From contig JACQXE010000051.1 in the NCBI GenBank assembly GCA_016208915.1, positions 1 through 64,000 of the forward strand: a DNA stretch of 64,000 nucleotides, given 5' to 3'. Position 1 is the first letter of the stretch. The number at the start of each line of letters is the position of its first letter. The DNA comes from Nitrospirota bacterium. GTDB lineage: Bacteria > Nitrospirota > Thermodesulfovibrionia > Thermodesulfovibrionales > UBA1546. The notes beneath the pieces were generated by a model. It had not been told where the DNA came from and ran no database searches. It was given only the letters and a program-made list of their open reading frames with translations. Below are positions 6,958 through 20,136 of this stretch, piece by piece. A program made the position numbers and the translations under genes.

Positions 6958-8256
6958 CTATGAGCCGTCATCTGTTTTGATATGCGGTGTTATGAATATG
7001 AGAAGCTCAGTTTTATCTTTTCTTTTAGTTTCTTTTTTAAAAAGCCATCCGAGCAGAGGTATTTTGGATAATAAGGGCACGCGGTTTTCCCCTTCAGTAT
7101 CAGTCTCAGTATAGATACCGCCTATAACTATTGTTTCTCCGTTTTTGATAAGAACTCCTGTCTGGGTCTCACGGCTAGTCTTTGGAGGGATGCCTAAAAC
7201 AGAACGGCTGAAATCAAATTCTTCTTTTTTTGTCAGAATCTTCAACGACACCTGTTCAAGATCTATTATCTTAGGTGTAACTGTCAAACGTAAAGAGGCT
7301 TCCTTTTCTGTAGTGCCTGTAACCTGCGAACTGCCTCCTGATATCGTTGTCGTAGGGATTATAATCTGCGTGCCGCTTGAAATTGTTGCCTCCTGGTTAT
7401 CCAAAACCATTACCTTCGGGCTGGAGAGTATCTTTGCCTTGCCCTCTGCCTCGAGCGCAGAAAGCTGCAAATCCAATGTCAGCTTGTTAGTTAATAAGCC
7501 TATGCCTATTGCTCCGCCACTTCCTGCGCCAACTGCCGCAGGAAGATTTACGTTAAATGCATTTCCTGAATAGCCTATTCCGCCGGTTAATGCAATTGCA
7601 GCTGTATCGGTTGATGTTGTCTTTGTGGCGCCTCCAAACACTAATACGTCTCCGGTCCGATACATAGTGCCCCATTGGATGCCTAACTCTTCTCTCGCAT
7701 TAGTACTGATCTCAACAATCTGCGCCTCGATCATTACCTGTTTTGTCTTTATATCTACCTGTTTCAATAGCTGAGCTGCCCTGTCTATTGCTGATGGAGT
7801 ATCCTTAATGACTATCGTGCTGCTCCTTATATCTGATGCCACTGTGCCTTTTTTGCTCAAGGCCTTTGTAATTACAGGTTCGAGTTCTTTCGGGTTCGCA
7901 TATTTGACAGTCATTGTGCGGGTTATAAGGTCAGCATCATCTTCCAATGGGACTATACTTACAATATTGCTCTCTTTGATGTAAGAATACCCTTTCCCTT
8001 TTAATATGGAGTCTATCGCATCCCAGAGCGGAACATTTCTGAGACTGACAGTCACCTTCCCGGTTAGCTTTTCATCGACAATGATGTTGATACCGTGCTC
8101 CTGTCCTATCGCCCTCATTACGTCCCGAAGTTCAACATCTCTGAGTTCTATCGAAACAAGCGGACCCTTATCCTCGGCATAAGCAGTAAACAGTGAACAG
8201 TTAATAGTAAACAGTAAAAAAATAATATGTAAAGCATAGCGCCTTTTCATCTTCAT
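6958..8256 (-). CDS. pilQ: type IV pilus secretin PilQ, short form
   Basis: At 432 aa this is shorter than typical PilQ because the AMIN domains are missing. After a signal peptide comes a secretin/TonB short domain (VELRDVMRAIGQEHGINIIV), a secretin_N domain (RTMTVKYANPKELEPV... SSTIVIKDTPSAIDRA), and the secretin barrel ending in GVLIKNGETIVIGGIY and ELLIFITPHI. It would form the outer-membrane pore for the pilus. The signal peptide (FTINCSLFTAYA) is encoded by a heptamer repeat at 8184-8218. It overlaps pilP by 4 bp, as expected in an operon. Confidence 0.9.
   Translation of the reverse strand: MKMKRRYALHIIFLLFTINCSLFTAYAEDKGPLVSIELRDVELRDVMRAIGQEHGINIIVDEKLTGKVTVSLRNVPLWDAIDSILKGKGYSYIKESNIVSIVPLEDDADLITRTMTVKYANPKELEPVITKALSKKGTVASDIRSSTIVIKDTPSAIDRAAQLLKQVDIKTKQVMIEAQIVEISTNAREELGIQWGTMYRTGDVLVFGGATKTTSTDTAAIALTGGIGYSGNAFNVNLPAAVGAGSGGAIGIGLLTNKLTLDLQLSALEAEGKAKILSSPKVMVLDNQEATISSGTQIIIPTTTISGGSSQVTGTTEKEASLRLTVTPKIIDLEQVSLKILTKKEEFDFSRSVLGIPPKTSRETQTGVLIKNGETIVIGGIYTETDTEGENRVPLLSKIPLLGWLFKKETKRKDKTELLIFITPHIKTDDGS
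8184..8218. repeat. heptamer array inside the pilQ signal-peptide codons
   Basis: The units CAGTAAA CAGTGAA CAGTTAA TAGTAAA CAGTAAA are read in frame as part of the signal peptide of PilQ. Confidence 0.85.
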
Positions 8257-8720
8257 CTTCTCCCCCCCTTCTGTCCGCCTAAGGCGGATTCAATAGCGAA
8301 TTTCTCTATTCCAAGATAAAACTTTTTCCCGCTTTTTTCTAAAATGACCCTGTCCTTGTTTATGCCTACTATCATGAAGTCATTGACCTTCTCGTTTTTC
8401 CTGTAAAATCCTCCGTTTATTATTGCCAATGCCCTTTCTCCGTCAGATATTATACCCTCAACCTTCAGACCTATTGAGACGTCTTCCTTTTGTATTCTTT
8501 CCTTTTTCAGCACGCTGTCTTCATATCTTATGAACGGGTCTCTCCCCCACTTTTCCTTTATTATTTCCTTCACAGGCGACTGCAATGCACTGAGTTTTAT
8601 ATCAGAAAGATTTTCTGCATAAGAAAGTGAAAAGTGAAAAGTGAAAAGTGAAAAGATAAAAATCATGGAAAATATTTTTTTTGATCTTTGTAATTTGCAA
8701 GTTGCAACTTTTCTCTTCAT
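8253..8720 (-). CDS. pilP: pilus assembly protein PilP-like
   Basis: This is a 155-aa exported protein at the pilP position between pilO and pilQ. Its C-terminal half (VEGIISDGERALAIINGGFYRKNEKVND) matches the beta-rich homology region by which PilP contacts PilQ, and DPF near 62 is the usual PilP lead-in. The N-terminal hydrophobic stretch is encoded by two short tandem arrays. I see no lipobox Cys, unlike many PilP lipoproteins. PilP links the inner-membrane PilNO complex to the secretin. It overlaps both neighbours by 4 bp. Confidence 0.78.
   Translation of the reverse strand: MKRKVATCKLQRSKKIFSMIFIFSLFTFHFSLSYAENLSDIKLSALQSPVKEIIKEKWGRDPFIRYEDSVLKKERIQKEDVSIGLKVEGIISDGERALAIINGGFYRKNEKVNDFMIVGINKDRVILEKSGKKFYLGIEKFAIESALGGQKGGRR
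8624..8710. repeat. heptamer arrays inside the pilP signal-peptide codons
   Basis: AAAGTGA is repeated four times and followed by AAAGATA (8624-8655). A second period-7 array (TTTGTAA TTTGCAA GTTGCAA) lies at about 8687-8707. Both are in frame in the exported N-terminus of PilP. Confidence 0.8.
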
Positions 8721-9277
8721 TGCTTTTTCCTCAGATAGGTCACAACCTTCAAAATGGCTATGCCTGAAGGATACAAGGCGCTGTTGGTCTCGAACTTGAG
8801 TTCCCGTATCAGAAACAATCTGTGTCTTAATTCAATACTTCTGAGAAAATCATACATCTCCCTGAATCTGACCCTTAACTCTATCTTTACCCTCATGATA
8901 ATAAAATTATCCTTATATTCGAACCCCTCAGGCGCTATGGATATGAAATCCACTCTTGCCATGCTTGCCTCACGGCTTATTGCCGCCAGCAAGCCTGAAA
9001 GGTCCTCTGCTTCCGGAAGTTTCATATCTTCGGCAATTTGATTTTTCTGAAGTGAAACCTGCGAAGACAGGGCAGTGTTTACAACCTCAATATCATTTTT
9101 CAGCGTCTGCAGAGTCTGCTGTTTTAAGTTTGCCTTCTGTGAAGCAGGCTTATACAGCAGAATATAGAAACCGCCTACTACTATAAATACCAGCATTAAT
9201 ACGCTGATAACCCTTTCCCTTCCTGAAAGGCGGTCTATCCTGCCGGCTATAGTTTTTCTCAAAGACTTTAGGTCCAT
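8717..9277 (-). CDS. pilO: pilus assembly protein PilO-like
   Basis: This 186-aa protein has one N-terminal membrane segment (about 24-42: ISVLMLVFIVVGGFYILLY), a coiled region, and a ferredoxin-like periplasmic domain including RVRFREMYDFLRSIELRHRLFLIREL. That architecture and the position between pilN and pilP identify PilO, which dimerises with PilN to form the inner-membrane alignment complex. It overlaps pilN by 10 bp and pilP by 4 bp. Confidence 0.85.
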   Translation of the reverse strand: MDLKSLRKTIAGRIDRLSGRERVISVLMLVFIVVGGFYILLYKPASQKANLKQQTLQTLKNDIEVVNTALSSQVSLQKNQIAEDMKLPEAEDLSGLLAAISREASMARVDFISIAPEGFEYKDNFIIMRVKIELRVRFREMYDFLRSIELRHRLFLIRELKFETNSALYPSGIAILKVVTYLRKKQ

Positions 9278-9804
9278 TTCAGTTTTGTCTTTAGTTCAAA
9301 GGAGATTTCCTTTTCTCCCTTTTGAGAAAATACGATTTCGACGTCGTAGAAGTACTGCGACGCCTCAAGCGCAGATATGAGATTCGCCACGCCAAGCTGT
9401 GTAGTTGTGAAGCCCTTTACGCTCATCAGCTTTATCCCTCTCTCATCTTTTGATTCGATGGAAGAGAGCCACACATTTTCAGGCACAAGAATTGATATCT
9501 CACTTATGATAAAGCTCCATCTGGGTGTTTTTCCTATAGCATCAAGTATCTCTCTGTCGACTGATGAGATGGTCTGGACAGGCGCAGATGCAACCAGTAA
9601 TTTTTGCTGTAAATCTGTTTTATGTTTGTTTAGCTTGTCCAGTTCGATATCAACCTTTCTGATCTCAATGCCCTTAAAAAACCAGAGAACAATTATTGTT
9701 ATGATATAAACTGCAAGCCCCGGGAAAATGTAATAAAACAGGCCCTTTATTTTAGGCTCGCCTGTTTTAACCTCTATTGGCAGAAGATTCAGCGTTTCCT
9801 TCAA
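9268..9804 (-). CDS. pilN: pilus assembly protein PilN-like
   Basis: This is a 178-aa bitopic protein. The N-terminus MKETLNLLPIEVK contains the cytoplasmic NLLP motif by which PilN docks onto PilM. A membrane helix (about 27-45) and a coiled region follow. The periplasmic domain (DAIGKTPRWSFIISEISILVPENVWLSSIE...) then gives the typical PilN fold. It overlaps pilM by 4 bp and pilO by 10 bp. Confidence 0.88.
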   Translation of the reverse strand: MKETLNLLPIEVKTGEPKIKGLFYYIFPGLAVYIITIIVLWFFKGIEIRKVDIELDKLNKHKTDLQQKLLVASAPVQTISSVDREILDAIGKTPRWSFIISEISILVPENVWLSSIESKDERGIKLMSVKGFTTTQLGVANLISALEASQYFYDVEIVFSQKGEKEISFELKTKLKWT

Positions 9805-10754
9805 GAACCCCTCCTCGCAAGACCTATTGCCACAGAGAACATTGAACCTAACTTTCTTATTTTCTCATCTTTAAGAACAAGGCCGTTAAAAGGATTAGGT
9901 GCGCTGACCGGAACATCGAATACGCCTGAGAAATATTCCCTTATTGCAGAACTGACGGCAACCCCTCCTGTCAGAATCACCGCTTCAAATGTCTTTTCTT
10001 TAAATGTGGCTTTATAATAATCTATGGACCTGAATATCTCTTTCAGTATCTGATTCAATATGTCTCGCATCTTTTCCGCAGGTCCGTTCATCAGTATGTT
10101 ATCTGCCTCTTCTTCTGAAAAACCCTCATTAAGAAGATGGTTCTTCAGATGTTCTCCTCCCATATCTACGGATCTGGTCAGCCTCAAAGCCCCTGCCTTG
10201 ACTATATCTATCTCCATCACCTTTGCGCCTATGTCTAAGATTATTACATTTCCGGGACTGTTTAGAGGGATCGCCCTGATCAAACACAAAGGGTTTATGT
10301 CAACAGATGTTATACGGAGACCGGATTCCTTTAAAGGAAAGATATGGCGATTAATATTTTCTCTTTCTGTAGAAGCGAATGTTACTATGATGCCGTCAGC
10401 CCCTTGCTTTGCAACATAATCATAGACTGCATTCTCGGCAGAATAAGGCAACTGTCTTTTTATCTCCCATCTTACAGCTTCCTTTAATTCGCTCTTCGGC
10501 ATGAGGGGCAGGGTTATGGTTCTTATAAAAGAAAAACTGCTGGGTATCTGTACTGAAGCCTCTTTGCCGATAATATTCAGTTCTTTGAAAAAATTGTGCA
10601 GGCTGTTTATGAAAAGTGTATCGTCTTCCCTCTCAGAGGAAGAAATATTCATGGAGGCGGCAATGGAAACTTTATTTGTTCTGAGTCCTATGACCTTTAT
10701 AGAACCACTGCCAAGATCTACCCCTAAGGGAGCAGGTCGAAACAGTTTTACCAT
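9801..10754 (-). CDS. pilM: pilus assembly protein PilM, actin-like ATPase
   Basis: This 317-aa cytoplasmic protein has the FtsA/actin-like fold. LGVDLGSGSIKVIGL at about 8-22 is the phosphate-1 motif, VIILDIGAKVMEID near 173 the phosphate-2 motif, and AVILTGGVAVSSAI near 257 the adenosine motif. PilM binds ATP and the PilN N-terminus at the inner membrane. It is the first recognised pil gene, after a small membrane-protein gene whose stop it overlaps by one base. Confidence 0.93.
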   Translation of the reverse strand: MVKLFRPAPLGVDLGSGSIKVIGLRTNKVSIAASMNISSSEREDDTLFINSLHNFFKELNIIGKEASVQIPSSFSFIRTITLPLMPKSELKEAVRWEIKRQLPYSAENAVYDYVAKQGADGIIVTFASTERENINRHIFPLKESGLRITSVDINPLCLIRAIPLNSPGNVIILDIGAKVMEIDIVKAGALRLTRSVDMGGEHLKNHLLNEGFSEEEADNILMNGPAEKMRDILNQILKEIFRSIDYYKATFKEKTFEAVILTGGVAVSSAIREYFSGVFDVPVSAPNPFNGLVLKDEKIRKLGSMFSVAIGLARRGS

Positions 10755-12131: not shown

Positions 12132-12160
12132 TGCAAAATAGATAGATTATTTTATATAAT
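12132..12160 (+). promoter_or_regulatory. promoter of the small CxxC ORF / ccsA-resB transcript
   Basis: A perfect TATAAT (12155-12160) lies 7 nt before the ATG at 12168, with a weak -35 (TGCAAA, 12132-12137) 17 bp upstream. A start site near 12167 would leave the small ORF with almost no leader. No Shine-Dalgarno sequence is visible. Confidence 0.5.
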
Positions 12161-12167
12161 TAAAGCA

Positions 12168-12299
12168 ATGGAATGCAGGGAATGTAAAGGGAGCTTAAAA
12201 CTGTACATAGGGTGAAAGGCAGTGAGTCTGCGCTGCATGGGATGCGGCAGAATATATCCTCCCTTGTTTATATTTGATAGAAAAAGGCGATTAATATGA
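12168..12299 (+). CDS. dual-CxxC small protein with in-frame UGA, putative selenoprotein
   Basis: One reading frame runs ATG GAA TGC AGG GAA TGT ... GGG TGA AAG ... TGC ATG GGA TGC GGC ... to TGA at 12297-12299, 43 codons in all. It encodes CREC, then YIG-UGA-KAVSLR, then CMGCG and a basic C-terminus. The two CxxC pairs on either side of the UGA (12213-12215) would make a zinc ribbon, and only read-through joins them. The last codon overlaps the ccsA start (ATGA), typical of coupled translation. A hairpin starts 11 nt after the UGA. I recall small dual-CxxC (seleno)proteins in anaerobes. The alternative is a CGA-to-TGA nonsense mutation of an Arg codon, giving a recent pseudogene. Confidence 0.6.
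12227..12251 (+). promoter_or_regulatory. SECIS-like hairpin downstream of the in-frame UGA
   Basis: TCTGC (12227-12231) pairs with GCAGA (12247-12251), and GCAT (12235-12238) with ATGC (12242-12245), leaving a GGG loop. G32/T34 of the 5' strand are bulged if C33 pairs with G46. The stem starts 11 nt after the UGA, the spacing known for the Escherichia coli fdhF SECIS apical stem-loop, which also has a bulged U and loop G residues. Confidence 0.5.
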
Positions 12300-13168
12300 C
12301 AGCAGAGGAAATACTTTCGAGAGATGCATTTTTGCTCGGCATGGAACTCAGGCTTTTCTGGCTTGTTGCCTTGCTCTATGCTATAAGTTTTCTAATAGGA
12401 ATTTCTTATCTTCTCTCATCAAGAAAGGCTGCTGGAAGGTTTCTGACAGTCAGTCTATGGTTCACTGCAATTGTTCATACGTTGCTTATTATATTCAGGA
12501 CGATCGAGGGTCAGAGACCGCCGTTCCAGACCCTTTACGAGACGCTTTCATGGTTTGCATGGTCAGCAAACATAACATATCTATTTGTCCAATCAAGATG
12601 GAAAGAGATACATTTTCCGGGAATCTTTGTATCAGGCATTGCAATGGCTGCATGTCTTTACAGCATTTTCACAAGAAGCCCTGAGATAATTCCTCTGCCT
12701 CCTGCCCTGCAGAGCCCATGGTATGAGGCACATGTGATTATCGCATTTCTTGCCTATGCTGTATTTGTTGTCAGTTTTGCCGTAGAGCTGACGCATCTGA
12801 TATTTGAAAGGACTTTCAGAAATAATGCGCTTGTGTTCGGTTTCCCTTTTGAAGGGTTTCACAGGTATGCGCACAGGCTTGTGCTTTTTGGATTTCCACT
12901 TATGACATTCGCTGTATTTTCGGGCGCTGCATGGGCAAATGATGCATGGGGAAGGTACTGGTCTTGGGACCCTAAGGAGACATGGTCATTGATTACATGG
13001 ACGGTCTATGCAATGTATCTTCACAGCAGGGCAATAGCAAGATGGAGAGATAATCCTGCGTCATTCCTGAATATCTTGGGTTTTATATGTATGATAATGA
13101 CATTCCTCGGCGTGAACTGGCTTGCTAAACTGCTAAATATACCGAGCATGCACACATATGGCGTCTAA
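12296..13168 (+). CDS. ccsA: cytochrome c maturation protein CcsA/ResC family
   Basis: This 290-aa protein has about eight membrane helices. The haem-handling WWD domain is clear: WANDAWGRYWSWDPKETWSL near residues 213-232. Conserved His residues for haem are present near 146 (WYEAHVIIAF), in FHRYAHRLV and in YLHSRAIARW. With ResB it forms the System II synthetase that exports haem and attaches it to CxxCH motifs outside the membrane. The octaheme cytochrome at 60-61 kb is a likely client. It overlaps resB by 11 bp. Confidence 0.93.
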   Translation: MTAEEILSRDAFLLGMELRLFWLVALLYAISFLIGISYLLSSRKAAGRFLTVSLWFTAIVHTLLIIFRTIEGQRPPFQTLYETLSWFAWSANITYLFVQSRWKEIHFPGIFVSGIAMAACLYSIFTRSPEIIPLPPALQSPWYEAHVIIAFLAYAVFVVSFAVELTHLIFERTFRNNALVFGFPFEGFHRYAHRLVLFGFPLMTFAVFSGAAWANDAWGRYWSWDPKETWSLITWTVYAMYLHSRAIARWRDNPASFLNILGFICMIMTFLGVNWLAKLLNIPSMHTYGV

Positions 13169-14567
13169 CAGACTCTATAACACATTTTCATCGTTAAAGA
13201 CATCCGTAGTGATACTCGCTGCCATGTCAGTGTTTTATATCCTCGGGACGATATTTCCACAGGGCGGAGATGTCGGAGACTATATGAAGGCAGGCGGAAA
13301 ATATATCACGATTGTTAAGGCCTTCAGTCTGCTTAATATATTTACGTCGCCATTATTCTTAATGCTCTCTATGCTCCTTTCTGCCAACCTTGTCATATGC
13401 ATCTATGAAAGGTTCAAGATGATGAAGGCAAGGGCTAAAGTGATCCCTCTGGAATCGATTATGAATAATCCGAACCTTATAGAGATAGGCAAGGGAGAAT
13501 ACAGCAATACAATTTTTAGCCGTTTGAAAGGCATGAGGTTCAGACTTATTGAAGAAGGAGAAGGTTATTATGTTTTTGGAAAAGGATTACCCTACTGGTG
13601 GCTCTCATGGATATATCATTTAGGTATAGTAGTTGCCATTATCGGGTTTCTGCTGACAGCGCTTATGTCATTCGAGAAAGAAGCGACGCTGTATAAAGAT
13701 ACGCCTGAAAAAATCTCCCTGTATAGCCAGGAGACAAGGCTTAATGAATATCTGAAAAAGCTCGGTCTCAATATACCGAAAGAAGACAAGTCAAAGGAAT
13801 ATTTCCTGATATTAAAAGATTTCAAGACCGAATATTATCAGTCCTTGAAATTCGAATATCCCAAGGAAAAACTTTCGCGGCTGGCAACAGTCATCGGCTG
13901 GCGGCCAATAGAGCCGTCAAAAGAGGGCGGACTTTCTCCCAAGATGTGGAAGACAGCGCTTGAGCTGAAGACTCCTGATAACAAAACAAAGGAGGCATCT
14001 TTATGGGTCAATCATCCGTTCAGATACAGAGGGCTTACGCTTTATCAGATGGGCTTCGAACAAAAGATGAGTATGGTTGTGGCAGGCAGAACCGTTGAGA
14101 TAAATTCGATGGAACAGTTCGAAATCCCGGGCATAAAAGGAAAGTTTATAACATCGCCTGTCAAGACCGGAAAGGTTTTCAAAAAAGACGGTACAGAAGA
14201 TAATGTGAAACCATTTTTTGACCTCTCATATATACCTGAGGGCAAGAAAAAGGAAAAATTGAAAGAGGTATATCTCGGCAGACAGGAAGACATTCGTGGT
14301 GTAAAAGTCCTGTTCAGGAATCTTAAAGAAGGAAGCTCATTGAGTTACAGGGTTGATCCTGGGGTTCCATTGATAGGGATATCAACGCTTCTTGTCTTTC
14401 TCGGCCTCTTAGTGAGGTGCCTTGGCTACTGGTACAGGGTTTATATTGTAATAAAGGGAAGGAAGATATTCACTCTTATAAGCACGAGGGGATTGTTCGC
14501 AAACAAAGACAGAATTCTAAAAAATATCCTGAATTCTGAAAGAAATGTCCTACTAGATAAGCACTAA
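13158..14567 (+). CDS. resB: cytochrome c biogenesis protein ResB/Ccs1
   Basis: This 469-aa protein has N-terminal membrane helices (about 13-35 and 55-78), a third near 150-175, a large extracytoplasmic region and a C-terminal helix near 405-428. The start SLKTSVVILAAMSVFYILGTIFPQGG and the segment LWVNHPFRYRGLTLYQMGFEQ are ResB hallmarks. It is the partner of CcsA in System II cytochrome c assembly, and the two genes overlap. A tRNA gene follows 66 bp later. Confidence 0.92.
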   Translation: MASNRLYNTFSSLKTSVVILAAMSVFYILGTIFPQGGDVGDYMKAGGKYITIVKAFSLLNIFTSPLFLMLSMLLSANLVICIYERFKMMKARAKVIPLESIMNNPNLIEIGKGEYSNTIFSRLKGMRFRLIEEGEGYYVFGKGLPYWWLSWIYHLGIVVAIIGFLLTALMSFEKEATLYKDTPEKISLYSQETRLNEYLKKLGLNIPKEDKSKEYFLILKDFKTEYYQSLKFEYPKEKLSRLATVIGWRPIEPSKEGGLSPKMWKTALELKTPDNKTKEASLWVNHPFRYRGLTLYQMGFEQKMSMVVAGRTVEINSMEQFEIPGIKGKFITSPVKTGKVFKKDGTEDNVKPFFDLSYIPEGKKKEKLKEVYLGRQEDIRGVKVLFRNLKEGSSLSYRVDPGVPLIGISTLLVFLGLLVRCLGYWYRVYIVIKGRKIFTLISTRGLFANKDRILKNILNSERNVLLDKH

Positions 14568-15556: not shown

Positions 15557-15835
15557 ATGGATAGAGATAAGCTAAAAGCATCAGTAAAAAATATGGGAAC
15601 TAAAGCATTGACGGATAAGTGTCCGCTCTGTGGAGGCATCAAAAAGGCAGGGAAAAGTACTTTTACAGTAGATTTAGGTTTTGGTGTCGTTGTAGTAAGA
15701 GATGTGCCTGCAACTGTATGCTCCCAGTGTGGCGCAGACTGGATTGAGGATGCGGTTGCATCAAAGTTGGAAGGGATTGTGAATGATGCCCGGCAGAAGC
15801 ACCTTACAGTAGAGATCACAACGCTATCTGCTTAA
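15557..15835 (+). CDS. YgiT/MqsA-type zinc-finger protein
   Basis: This 92-aa protein has two CxxC pairs, CPLCGG near 23-28 and CSQCGADW near 54-61, the zinc site found at the N-terminus of MqsA (YgiT) antitoxins. The VPATVCSQCGADWIE phrase is characteristic. No helix-turn-helix domain follows and no MqsR-like toxin gene is seen upstream, only the sigma-54 leader. It may be an orphan antitoxin-like regulator. A terminator follows at 15947. Confidence 0.78.
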   Translation: MDRDKLKASVKNMGTKALTDKCPLCGGIKKAGKSTFTVDLGFGVVVVRDVPATVCSQCGADWIEDAVASKLEGIVNDARQKHLTVEITTLSA

Positions 15836-16062: not shown

Positions 16063-19000
16063 ATGAAGCTGCTAAAAATGAATTCTTCAAGAAAGTTAAT
16101 GGTTATATTTTTTATCTTCTTTATTTTTGGATTCGCACGAAATGGTTTTTCAACGTTATCTGATAATGCAGGTGGGCAGCCTTCTGTAAGACCCTTAGAT
16201 TTAACGAAATATCCGACATCAGAAGAAATCACGGCGGCCGGTCAGCTTGGAGGCCCTATCTATCCCACTCATGAAATACAGGATAAGAGCAGAAGAGAGG
16301 TGATAAATCTTTCTTTTGGTAAAGCCATACAGGAATGGAACAGGCATGAATATGTGACGGCTGTCCAATTGTTCCAGGAACATATCCAGGAATTTCCAGA
16401 CAGTCCGTGGGTATCTGAAGCAATCCTCCATATAGGCTGTGATGCCCATTACAATGGAAGATACAATGAGGCAGAAGAAAGCTTCAAATGGATAATAGAG
16501 GAGAATAAAGACAAAGATTACGATGGCGCCAGAAGACTGCTGAACAAAGCGAGGCTGCGGCTCGGCGTATTGAGTGTCGAACAATACAAGTTTAGTGAAG
16601 CAAAAGAGCTGTTCCATGAACTTAAAAGAGAAGGTTCTGATTGGCGCGAACGCACCTATGCGGCTCACTGGATACAGCGCCTTTCCAGATATTCGGCCAA
16701 TGAGCTTGCCATGCTTAATTGCGGGACAAAGGCTCTTGCGTATTTATTAGAAAAAGAGGGGAAAAAGGATGAGGCGCGTAAGGTGATGGAACAGTTGCCT
16801 GAAACCAGCCAGGGCCACAGCATGAAGGCCCTTTCCGATATCGCTTCCAGATACGGATATAGCATGGCTGTCCTCAGGGTTACGCTGAAGGAACTGAAAA
16901 AACTGCCCCTGCCCGCAATTGTTCACTTGGGCGCGAAAACGCCGGGAAGGGGCGGACACTACTGGATTTTGGAGAAGATTAAGGAAGACTCCGTTGAATT
17001 ACATGATCCGCAATCAGGCCGCAGGTTCGGGCAGAGCCTCAAAGCATTCGCAAAGGAATGGAGCAGCCGTGCACTCGTATTTTCAGACAAAAAAGACCTT
17101 CCCGGCATAAAGCTGACTGAAGGTGATATGAAACAGTTCTATGGCGGATGCTGCGGAGTCCCAGCTCCGGAAGATGGCAATGGAGATCCGGGCCGCAACG
17201 GAGGGCCAGACCCTAAAGGAGATTGTCCAGGCCCCTATGGTTCTCCGGGCTGGTCTGTGAATATCATCAACTTGAATCTCTATGTACACGATATTCCATT
17301 ATGGTATAGGAGCACTTTAGGCCCCTCAGTAGAGATTTCACTGAGCTACAATTCCCAATCGGCTATAGCCTATAACGAACCCTTCGGTAATAAGTGGCAG
17401 TTCAATTACGGCAGTTATCTCGTTGTTGATACCTCAGGGAATGTGACTGTATTCATGCCGGACGGCAGACGTGATGAGTATACAAAGAATTATTCAGGGG
17501 ATTACAATCATCCCTATCAAGTATTCAATACGCTCACCAAGATTGGTGAAAATCATTATGAATTGAAATTCCATAATGATACAGTTTATGTATATAACAT
17601 TCCTTCGGGAACGAGTTCTCTCCAGCCTTTTCTTGTTGAGATACGCGACCGTCAAGGGCAAAAGCTCACCTTTAATTATGATACGAATGTCCGATTAACG
17701 ACGATTAACGATGCACTCGGAAGGACAACTAACCTTACATATAATGCGCAAGGACTTGTAACACAGGTTACAGATCCCTTCAGCCGTTCCGCTGCATTTG
17801 AATATGACGCCGATAGGAATCTTACGAAAATTACTGATATGGGCGGATATTGGTCAACAATCAGCTACGATGCGGACGTTTACATCACGAGCATAGAGAA
17901 CCAGAAGGGAAAGTGGTTATTTTATATCGAGCCGGCTGACGGGATTCCAAACGGCTCAAATGATTACCCGCCGCCGGGTGGAACTATGTGGCAGGATTAC
18001 CGTATTACGATCACGAATCCGTTAAACGATAAGGAAGAGTACCATTACACCGGCAATCTCGTGTATGCCTGGTATGTGTCTCCCAAACATTATGTTCCAT
18101 ATGCGAGCAGTTCTGTTAACAACTTCAGAAGCGCTTTTAAAACCGTCTTTCACAGTACTGTCATATCCGGACGCGGTGAGATCGGCACAATCCAGGACCC
18201 TGAAGGAGTTACTGTTACTTTCGGCTATGACCCTAACGGCAACAGAACGAGCATCAAGGATGCGAATGGCAACACAACATCGATTGCATATGACACACAG
18301 GGCAATATTACGAGCATTACAGATCCGCTCAGCAATCTGGTTCAGTTGAATTACGACAGCAACAATAATCTCACCAGCCTGATCGATCCGGCAGGAAATA
18401 TTTATGCCTATACCTATGATCCTGGCAACAATATCGATTTAACAAAGATTACTGATCCAAAAAGCGGCGAGACAACCTTTACCTATTATTCCTATGGCAA
18501 GCTAAAGACACTGACAGACGCAAAGGGGCAGACAACCTCGTTCGAATATGATAGCCAATGGAATCTTACGAAAGTGATAAGCCCCGGCGGGACTGACATT
18601 TATGCCTATGATGCTGTGGGAAGGGTTGAATCTCATACCGACCCGAAAAGCAATACCCTCCATTACACCTATGACAATTTAAATCGTCTATTGCACATCA
18701 CATATCCCGACAGCTTCATAAAAGAATACGCTTATGACTGCTGCGGGTTTGACAGCGTTACGGACAGAAACGGGACAGTCACATTCTCACATGATGATAT
18801 GCACAGAATCTCCAGTGTCACTGACGTATACGGCAACCTGATATCCTATGCCTATGATAAAAACAGCAACCTTTTCACTCTTACCTATCCCGATAGCAAG
18901 CAAGTCGTTTATGCATATGACAACGCGGACCGCTTGATCAATGTTACAGACTGGCTGAATAATGTGACATCTTACGTATATGATTCTGTCGGTGCGCTTG

Positions 19001-20136
19001 TCGGCACAATATTGCCCGATAATTCCATCACAATGTATGAATATGATAAGGCACAGAGGCTTACATCGTTTCTGGATTTCGCAAGTGATGCGAGCGTGAA
19101 CGCTGTCTTCAAATATACGCTCGATAAGCTGGGGAACAGGACAGCTATCAACTTCTATCAGCCGCTCAACATGGTTTCGCCTTTGCAGAATACCAGCTAT
19201 ACATACAACAGCGACAATAGATTGCTCACAGCCGGAAGCACATCCTATAGTTATGACAATAACGGGAATCTGATAACTAAGACACAGGGAGGCAATGTTA
19301 CAAACTATTCATGGGACTTCAACAACATGCTTGCTCAGGTTACAGTTGGTGGAAACACCTATGGATACAAATATGACGGCCTTGGGAACAGGATTGCAAA
19401 AACAGTGAATTCTGTTGAGACAAGATATGCAGTTGATCCAAAAGGTGGATTGTCAAAGGTTCTGGCAGAAACGACAGCAACCGGAAGCATCACTTCTTAT
19501 TATGTCTACGGACTTGGTCTTATCTCAAAAATAACCCCTTCCGGGCAGGCATATTACTATCATTATGATGGTATAGGCAGTACCATTGCTATAACCGATT
19601 CATTAGGAAACACAGTCAACAAATATGCCTACGATGCATTCGGAAAAGTCATAAGCCAGACAGAAACAATCCCAAATCCATTTAAATATGTCGGAAGGTT
19701 TGGCGTGATGGATGACGGGAATGGATTGCTCTATATGCGGGCAAGATATTATGACCCTGAGGTTGGGAGGTTTATAAATAAAGATCCTGTCAGGTTTATA
19801 GACGGATCGAATACTTATGTTTATGTGGAAAACAATCCAATAAGATTTATCGATCCTCTTGGAAACGACCTATTAGATGTCTCTCTTTCATGTGTGGCGG
19901 CAACTCTTGGAACGTTCTTCCCAGAGGTTGGTGCGGCGGCGGCGATTCCGTTAGCAGGATTGGCATGTGCGATTTCAACAGATGCGGCTTCAATTGGACT
20001 AACTTTGGGCGGTATCTTAAATCCGGTGGTTGGATGGGCCAGCTGTGTTTACGAAATAAGTAGAATACTTAAAGAATTGAGAGACGAGCAGCGAAGGATA
20101 AATATAGAAACCTATGGGTTGGAATACTATCATTAG
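16063..20136 (+). CDS. secreted RHS/YD-repeat protein with N-terminal C39-like peptidase domain
   Basis: This 1357-aa protein starts with a signal peptide (about 1-30; RBS AAAGGAGAG) and TPR-like helices (about 85-200). A C39-like cysteine-peptidase domain follows, with Cys220 (NCGTKAL), His299 (GGHYW) and Asp315 (HDPQSG) as a plausible triad. A Gly/Pro linker (EDGNGDPGRNGGPDPKG) leads to a long run of YD repeats (YDANGN-type) and the RHS core LLYMRARYYDPEVGRFINKD, closing at DPLGN near 1267. After the core comes a distinct 90-aa tail (about 1268-1357) with two hydrophobic Ala/Gly-rich stretches and a charged end, the usual place of a polymorphic toxin. RHS shells encapsulate and release C-terminal toxins. 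No immunity gene is obvious, as the next ORF encodes PPC/CARDB domains. Confidence 0.86.
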   Translation: MKLLKMNSSRKLMVIFFIFFIFGFARNGFSTLSDNAGGQPSVRPLDLTKYPTSEEITAAGQLGGPIYPTHEIQDKSRREVINLSFGKAIQEWNRHEYVTAVQLFQEHIQEFPDSPWVSEAILHIGCDAHYNGRYNEAEESFKWIIEENKDKDYDGARRLLNKARLRLGVLSVEQYKFSEAKELFHELKREGSDWRERTYAAHWIQRLSRYSANELAMLNCGTKALAYLLEKEGKKDEARKVMEQLPETSQGHSMKALSDIASRYGYSMAVLRVTLKELKKLPLPAIVHLGAKTPGRGGHYWILEKIKEDSVELHDPQSGRRFGQSLKAFAKEWSSRALVFSDKKDLPGIKLTEGDMKQFYGGCCGVPAPEDGNGDPGRNGGPDPKGDCPGPYGSPGWSVNIINLNLYVHDIPLWYRSTLGPSVEISLSYNSQSAIAYNEPFGNKWQFNYGSYLVVDTSGNVTVFMPDGRRDEYTKNYSGDYNHPYQVFNTLTKIGENHYELKFHNDTVYVYNIPSGTSSLQPFLVEIRDRQGQKLTFNYDTNVRLTTINDALGRTTNLTYNAQGLVTQVTDPFSRSAAFEYDADRNLTKITDMGGYWSTISYDADVYITSIENQKGKWLFYIEPADGIPNGSNDYPPPGGTMWQDYRITITNPLNDKEEYHYTGNLVYAWYVSPKHYVPYASSSVNNFRSAFKTVFHSTVISGRGEIGTIQDPEGVTVTFGYDPNGNRTSIKDANGNTTSIAYDTQGNITSITDPLSNLVQLNYDSNNNLTSLIDPAGNIYAYTYDPGNNIDLTKITDPKSGETTFTYYSYGKLKTLTDAKGQTTSFEYDSQWNLTKVISPGGTDIYAYDAVGRVESHTDPKSNTLHYTYDNLNRLLHITYPDSFIKEYAYDCCGFDSVTDRNGTVTFSHDDMHRISSVTDVYGNLISYAYDKNSNLFTLTYPDSKQVVYAYDNADRLINVTDWLNNVTSYVYDSVGALVGTILPDNSITMYEYDKAQRLTSFLDFASDASVNAVFKYTLDKLGNRTAINFYQPLNMVSPLQNTSYTYNSDNRLLTAGSTSYSYDNNGNLITKTQGGNVTNYSWDFNNMLAQVTVGGNTYGYKYDGLGNRIAKTVNSVETRYAVDPKGGLSKVLAETTATGSITSYYVYGLGLISKITPSGQAYYYHYDGIGSTIAITDSLGNTVNKYAYDAFGKVISQTETIPNPFKYVGRFGVMDDGNGLLYMRARYYDPEVGRFINKDPVRFIDGSNTYVYVENNPIRFIDPLGNDLLDVSLSCVAATLGTFFPEVGAAAAIPLAGLACAISTDAASIGLTLGGILNPVVGWASCVYEISRILKELRDEQRRINIETYGLEYYH

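What the first reader, a model, noticed from the sequence alone, without database searches (positions are those of the whole stretch)
12168..12299. Tiny dual-CxxC ORF joined by an in-frame UGA, with a SECIS-like hairpin and coupling to ccsA
Seen: ATG at 12168, CxxC, UGA at 12213-12215, a second CxxC, and a terminal UGA overlapping the ccsA ATG. A hairpin (12227-12251) starts 11 nt after the internal UGA, the spacing of the fdhF SECIS apical stem-loop, with a bulged U and G residues in the loop. Known: bacterial selenoproteins need such a hairpin directly after the UGA, and I recall small dual-CxxC selenoproteins from anaerobes. Inference: a selenocysteine protein expressed with System II cytochrome c maturation. 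Standard gene callers would miss it.
Basis: partly seen in the sequence, partly recalled or inferred. Interest (0 to 1): 0.82.

Follow-up and report, generated by a model that had tools for sequence, protein, structure and literature searches.

The report
Truncated small zinc-ribbon selenoprotein gene
The tiny gene with an internal stop codon is almost certainly a real selenocysteine-containing small protein of an already catalogued family, but in this bacterium its tail has been deleted so that it now runs into a cytochrome-c assembly gene, and that link is an accident of this lineage rather than a general feature.

Summary
It is a C-terminally truncated relative of NCBIfam NF041197, "dual CXXC motif small (seleno)protein" (32.9 bits, cut-off 40), published as OS_HP3 / hypothetical protein DW. 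The genome has selA, selB, selD and tRNA-Sec. Of 76 loci aligned, 71 have UGA, 5 have Cys and none has Arg at the position. Several Cys forms sit in genomes that lack or are losing the Sec machinery.

The SECIS is supported. A 6-7 bp hairpin (12232-12248) is conserved, and its Cys codons are TGC in 136/142 cases against 86/140 upstream of the UGA in the same genes.

The ccsA link is not a family feature. Only the window and sister genome G005 have it. G005 has a full-length gene plus a 168-nt gap before ccsA. The window lacks that stretch: the conserved last ~22 residues are gone and the ORF reads into ccsA's ATG (ATGA overlap).

A new lead: in this taxonomic family a TATAAT-type box lies 5-7 nt before the ATG in 12/12 genomes (11 perfect), against 2/99 perfect in control ORFs. 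This suggests a leaderless mRNA.

The predicted fold is a C4 zinc ribbon with Sec between the knuckles. Its function is unproven.

The parts
12155..12160 (+). Perfect TATAAT -10 box, 7 nt before the ATG; predicted transcription start at or within 1-2 nt of the ATG (leaderless mRNA, inferred)
   Evidence: Perfect in 11 of 12 genomes of the same taxonomic family at 5-7 nt; 2/99 control ORFs
12168..12299 (+). Selenoprotein ORF, MECRECKGSLKLYIGUKAVSLRCMGCGRIYPPLFIFDRKRRLI*
   Evidence: Translation; NF041197 match E 5.3e-08
12174..12185 (+). First CxxC motif (predicted zinc knuckle)
   Evidence: Both Cys invariant in alignment A1
12213..12215 (+). In-frame UGA read as selenocysteine
   Evidence: UGA in 71, Cys codon in 5 of 76 loci, no other residue
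12232..12248 (+). SECIS-type hairpin, conserved core (7 bp, GGG loop), 16 nt after the UGA
   Evidence: Core pairs kept in 61-71 of 71 Sec loci; all 6 core pairs in 59/71 Sec against 0/5 Cys forms; TGC bias p = 2e-13; z = -2.24 against synonymous-codon shuffles for the window copy
12234..12245 (+). Second CxxC motif, inside the hairpin
   Evidence: Both Cys invariant
12261..12296 (+). Non-homologous 12-residue tail that replaces the conserved C-terminus (xEYxDEIDExTWxxISxRPCNRA)
   Evidence: Profile match stops at position 29-30 of 53; alignment with sister genome G005
12296..13168 (+). ccsA/ccsB-type System II cytochrome c biogenesis gene, start codon overlaps the ORF's stop (ATGA)
   Evidence: TIGR03144 198.9 bits, cut-off 187.6
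13158..14567 (+). Downstream resB-like partner ORF (name inferred from position and from the syntenic ORF in G005; no NCBIfam match)
   Evidence: 74% identical to the syntenic ORF in G005
6958..10754 (-). pilM-N-O-P-Q type IV pilus block upstream (PilQ and PilM by profile; the rest inferred from position), shared upstream context of this gene in several genomes of the family

Best explanation
This is a real selenoprotein gene of the NF041197 kind, truncated at its 3' end in this genome. It is transcribed from its own sigma-70-type promoter, whose -10 box lies so close to the ATG that the mRNA should be leaderless. Translation meets the UGA at codon 16, and SelB with Sec-tRNA(Sec) reads it because a short hairpin 16 nt downstream acts as the SECIS. 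The product is a C4 zinc ribbon (two CxxC knuckles) with Sec in the stretch between the two knuckles, most likely a small thiol/selenol redox or metal-handling protein. In this lineage a deletion removed the conserved C-terminal segment and the whole spacer before ccsA. The ORF now ends on the ccsA start codon, and ccsA-resB has probably come under the selenoprotein promoter. Shown: sequence, family match, Sec machinery, Sec/Cys alternation, hairpin conservation, truncation relative to the sister genome. Inferred: Sec insertion in vivo, leaderless transcription, zinc binding, redox role, co-transcription with ccsA.
For: NF041197 match through the UGA. SelA, SelB, SelD and a tRNA-Sec with TCA anticodon in the genome. 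Family in 51/61 genomes of the relatives search and 152/396 genomes of the phylum, nearly all with exactly one internal TGA. 71 Sec, 5 Cys, 0 Arg among 76 loci. Stop-free (Cys-type) forms occur in G210 (no SelA, no tRNA-Sec), G258 (neither found) and G260 (SelA reduced to fragments, one with a TAA), i.e. Sec replaced where the machinery is lost, though also in G054 and G253, which keep it. Hairpin codon bias 136/142 against 86/140 TGC, p = 2e-13. Low dN (0.12-0.36) against dS (0.6-1.6) over the retained 28 codons. Zinc-ribbon model, pLDDT 80, closest PDB fold the aIF2-beta zinc ribbon 1k81.
Against: The window copy scores below the family's curated cut-off and lacks the conserved C-terminus, so it may be inactive or decaying. 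Its -35 region is weaker than in relatives, and the promoter scan lists no + strand site there. Three relatives of the same taxonomic family with SelA lack the gene (G003, G008, G012), so it is dispensable. The hairpin overlaps the codons of the conserved CxxC, so part of its conservation is due to the protein. Only about a third of the Sec loci fold significantly better than synonymous shuffles. The Foldseek matches are weak (best E 0.2).
Confidence: 0.8

Rival explanations
1. The window copy is a recent pseudogene: a former NF041197 selenoprotein gene whose 3' end was deleted, with promoter, UGA and hairpin surviving only because little time has passed.
For: Loss of 20-odd residues conserved in nearly all homologues; gene absent altogether in several relatives; -35 box degraded.
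Against: Zinc-ribbon part, UGA, hairpin (all 7 pairs) and -10 box are intact; divergence from relatives is mostly synonymous (dN/dS about 0.1-0.6), although this cannot see very recent relaxation.
Confidence: 0.3
2. Assembly error: a mis-join or collapsed stretch in the draft genome removed the C-terminus and spacer, and the real gene is full length and 100-200 nt from ccsA as in G005.
For: The genome is a draft of 88 contigs; the sister genome has the full arrangement.
Against: The 36-nt junction stretch (12261-12296) has no clear match in the sister's spacer, so it is not a simple clean excision of the sister-like sequence.
Confidence: 0.12
3. The UGA is an ordinary stop: a 15-codon ORF or leader peptide, and the downstream similarity is coincidental or untranslated.
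For: In-frame UGA; no experimental data.
Against: 71 UGA and 5 Cys loci, conserved protein after the UGA, Sec machinery present.
Confidence: 0.02
4. The overlap is a working regulatory device: Sec insertion lets ribosomes reach the ccsA start and re-initiate, so cytochrome c assembly depends on selenium.
For: ATGA overlap; the spacer between the genes, present in G005, is gone.
Against: Found in one genome only; the ccsA ATG has a weak SD-like AAGG of its own; the overlap is explained by the deletion alone.
Confidence: 0.07

Closest known systems
NF041197 CxxC_Se_CxxC, dual CXXC motif small (seleno)protein (OS_HP3; hypothetical protein DW)
   Same: Two CxxC motifs with Sec between them at the same spacing; Sec/Cys alternation; downstream hairpin; bacteria with a Sec system (PMC9312934, PMC12013277, PMC13188914 list the family)
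   Different: The window copy matches profile positions 1-30 of 53 only, scores 32.9 against a cut-off of 40, lacks the conserved C-terminal segment, and overlaps ccsA
Bacterial SECIS elements (e.g. fdhF of E. coli)
   Same: Hairpin directly downstream of the UGA inside the coding region, G in the loop (66/71 Sec loci)
   Different: Stem starts 16 nt after the UGA in this family, short 6-7 bp stem; no bulged U shown (comparison with fdhF is from memory)
C4 zinc ribbons such as the aIF2-beta zinc ribbon (1k81) and ZifS (8yoz)
   Same: Three-stranded sheet with two CxxC knuckles; TM-scores 0.58-0.59 on the query
   Different: Sec between the knuckles; no significant sequence or fold E-value; no evidence of nucleic-acid binding

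Membership tests
NF041197 dual CXXC motif small (seleno)protein | Curated whole-protein score of at least 40 bits | tested here: not met
   32.9 bits, E 5.3e-08; full-length relatives in the same taxonomic family score 43.7-53.2
NF041197 dual CXXC motif small (seleno)protein | Two CxxC motifs flanking a Sec or Cys at fixed spacing | tested here: met
   CxxC-x9-U-x6-CxxC in the window and homologues
NF041197 dual CXXC motif small (seleno)protein | Conserved C-terminal segment EYxDEIDExTWxxISxRPCNRA | tested here: not met
   Absent; profile match ends at position 30
Bacterial selenoprotein | Genome encodes selA, selB, selD and tRNA-Sec | tested here: met
Bacterial selenoprotein | Homologues with Cys at the UGA position | tested here: met
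   L085, L093, L095, L101, L105
Bacterial selenoprotein | SECIS hairpin directly after the UGA | tested here: met
   Hairpin core 12232-12248, conservation and codon bias
Bacterial selenoprotein | Selenium present in the product | not testable with these tools
   Needs 75Se labelling or mass spectrometry
System II cytochrome c maturation component | Conserved linkage of the small gene with ccsA/resB | tested here: not met
   Immediate ccsA only in the window and G005 of about 50 loci
Leaderless mRNA | -10 box 5-8 nt before the start codon and no Shine-Dalgarno | tested here: met
   TATAAT at 7 nt, no SD; 12/12 in the family at 5/6 or better
Leaderless mRNA | Mapped 5' end at the start codon | not testable with these tools
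   Needs 5' end mapping

The most novel reading that the evidence does not exclude
A leaderless selenoprotein message whose UGA read-through controls, by termination-reinitiation at the ATGA overlap, the translation of ccsA-resB, so that selenium supply gates cytochrome c maturation in this lineage.
Probability: 0.07. Interest if true: 0.7.

Novelty: new variant of a known kind. Interest (0 to 1): 0.4.

Why it matters
It confirms, with independent evidence, that a tiny ORF missed by ordinary gene calling is a selenoprotein, and it shows the family is the rule rather than the exception among this organism's relatives (51 of 61 genomes searched). The natural Sec-to-Cys switches in genomes losing selA or tRNA-Sec give an experiment already done by evolution. 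The predicted leaderless start is a new, directly testable property. If mapped, it would show SelB-dependent recoding on mRNAs without a 5' leader, for which the library search found no precedent (a limited, open-access library).

Tried and rejected
Functional link to System II cytochrome c maturation: rejected as a general feature. Conserved neighbours that would reveal the function: none beyond lineage-specific blocks (pilMNOPQ upstream in several genomes of the family, argininosuccinate synthase downstream in eight loci, ribosomal protein S20-like in five; neighbour names from sequence by eye except where one search gives them). A single frameshift hiding the C-terminus: rejected, because only 36 nt lie between the conserved part and the ccsA ATG, too short for the missing residues. 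Remnants of the sister's C-terminus or spacer in the junction: not detectable (127 of 500 shuffles score as high). Naming the organism: the genome-contig scan left out the window's own lineage. PDB sequence search gave only generic zinc-finger matches. The first motif regex was badly written and its output was discarded.

Full report
What is there. The ORF at 12168-12299 is exactly as described: MECRECKGSLKLYIGUKAVSLRCMGCGRIYPPLFIFDRKRRLI, with UGA at 12213-12215 and a final UGA that overlaps the ATG of the next gene as ATGA. That next gene passes the CcsB/CcsA profile of System II cytochrome c biogenesis. The ORF lies between a divergent coiled-coil gene with a pilMNOPQ block beyond it and the ccsA-resB pair.

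It is a known family. NCBIfam NF041197, 'dual CXXC motif small (seleno)protein', matches residues 3-32 across the UGA at E 5.3e-08, 32.9 bits, below the curated 40 bits. The literature lists it as hypothetical protein OS_HP3 and as hypothetical protein DW (PMC9312934, PMC12013277, PMC13188914). The window copy falls short because it matches only profile positions 1-30 of 53.

Selenium machinery. The genome encodes SelA (536.6 bits), SelB (394.4), SelD (327.1, itself with an in-frame TGA) and one tRNA-Sec with TCA anticodon.

Homologues. Among 61 genomes of the relatives search 51 have the gene, 45 above cut-off; in a sample of 396 genomes of the phylum 152 do. I read 76 loci: 71 have TGA at the position, 5 have a Cys codon, none Arg or Trp. 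Six genomes have full-length matches without an internal stop (G054, G210, G253, G258, G260, G346). Five of these were read and have Cys; G210 was not read. G210 and G258 lack detectable SelA and tRNA-Sec. G260 keeps a tRNA-Sec but its SelA is only fragments, one with a TAA. G346 has SelA but no tRNA-Sec match. G253 and G054 keep both. Replacement of Sec by Cys therefore tends to go with loss of the machinery, but does not require it.

The hairpin. Five inner pairs are kept in 69-71 of 71 Sec loci and the outermost in 61. Because the second CxxC is encoded inside the hairpin, protein conservation alone explains part of this. Three tests separate the two. Cys codons inside the hairpin are TGC in 136 of 142 cases, against 86 of 140 for the Cys codons of the same genes upstream of the UGA (Fisher p = 2e-13; loci are related, so the p value is optimistic). 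All six core pairs are complete in 59 of 71 Sec loci but in none of 5 Cys loci. Against synonymous-codon shuffles the mean z is -1.46 over Sec loci and -2.24 for the window. The last of these is modest, and only a third of the loci reach p < 0.05.

The truncation and ccsA. The closest arrangement is sister genome G005 (L045): full-length gene ending ...EYIDEIDEETWKQISSRPCDRA, 168 nt of spacer, then ccsA (86% identical) and a resB-like ORF (74%). In the window the conserved part ends at Pro31 and a non-homologous 12-residue tail leads straight to the ccsA ATG. The missing part cannot be restored by one frameshift, because only 36 nt are present. A deletion in this lineage, less likely an assembly fault, made the overlap. 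In the other loci the gene has different neighbours, so the ccsA linkage says nothing about the family's function. One consequence is inferred: the spacer that could hold ccsA's own promoter is gone, so ccsA-resB may now depend on the selenoprotein promoter.

Leaderless start. In all 12 genomes of the same taxonomic family that carry the gene, a -10 box of at least 5/6 lies 5-7 nt before the ATG; it is a perfect TATAAT in 11, including the window (12155-12160, 7 nt before the ATG). No Shine-Dalgarno is present. Perfect boxes at 4-8 nt occur in 2 of 99 other ORF starts in those loci. Outside this family, 14 of 53 selenoprotein-gene starts have 5/6 or better against 32 of 569 controls. A -10 hexamer at that distance puts the transcription start at or next to the ATG, so the mRNA should be leaderless. 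The window's -35 region is weaker than its relatives', and the consensus scan does not list a + strand promoter there. The sequences are related, so the tests overstate significance, but the pattern is strong. Two library searches found no report of a leaderless bacterial selenoprotein gene.

Fold. The window protein folded alone gives a three-stranded zinc-ribbon model, mean pLDDT 80 (two of five models good, three poor). The nearest solved fold is the zinc ribbon of aIF2-beta, E 0.2. Sec sits between the two predicted knuckles. With four Cys for zinc and one further selenol, a redox or metal-handling role is my best guess, but no evidence here identifies a partner.

Verdict. The selenoprotein call is right. 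The family is already catalogued. The ccsA coupling is a lineage-specific by-product of a deletion, and whether the truncated protein still works is open (about 0.3 for pseudogene). The new elements are the truncation itself and the predicted leaderless start.

Noticed in passing
L041 (own genome, SelD): The genome's own SelD carries one in-frame TGA, so it appears to be a selenoprotein itself.
   Followed up: no
L076 (G045, contig C3): G045 (99% complete) has the TGA form of the gene and two tRNA-Sec-like genes but no SelA match at all; SelA may be missing from the assembly or replaced.
   Followed up: partly
G260:C105:4711-5259: Fragments of selA, one with an in-frame TAA, next to a tRNA-Sec gene, in a genome whose dual-CxxC protein has Cys: a Sec system apparently caught during loss.
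   Followed up: partly
L045 4362-4531 (G005 spacer before ccsA): The sister genome's spacer holds a terminator-like stem listed on the opposite strand and a TGCTATATT stretch upstream of ccsA, i.e. possible separate signals for ccsA that the window lacks.
   Followed up: partly
window 15557-15835: Small ORF with CPLCGG and CSQCG motifs resembling a zinc-binding antitoxin-type protein (recognised by eye only).
   Followed up: no
window 16063-20136: 1357-residue RHS/YD-repeat protein preceded by TPR-like and C39-peptidase-like sequence (recognised by eye only).
   Followed up: no
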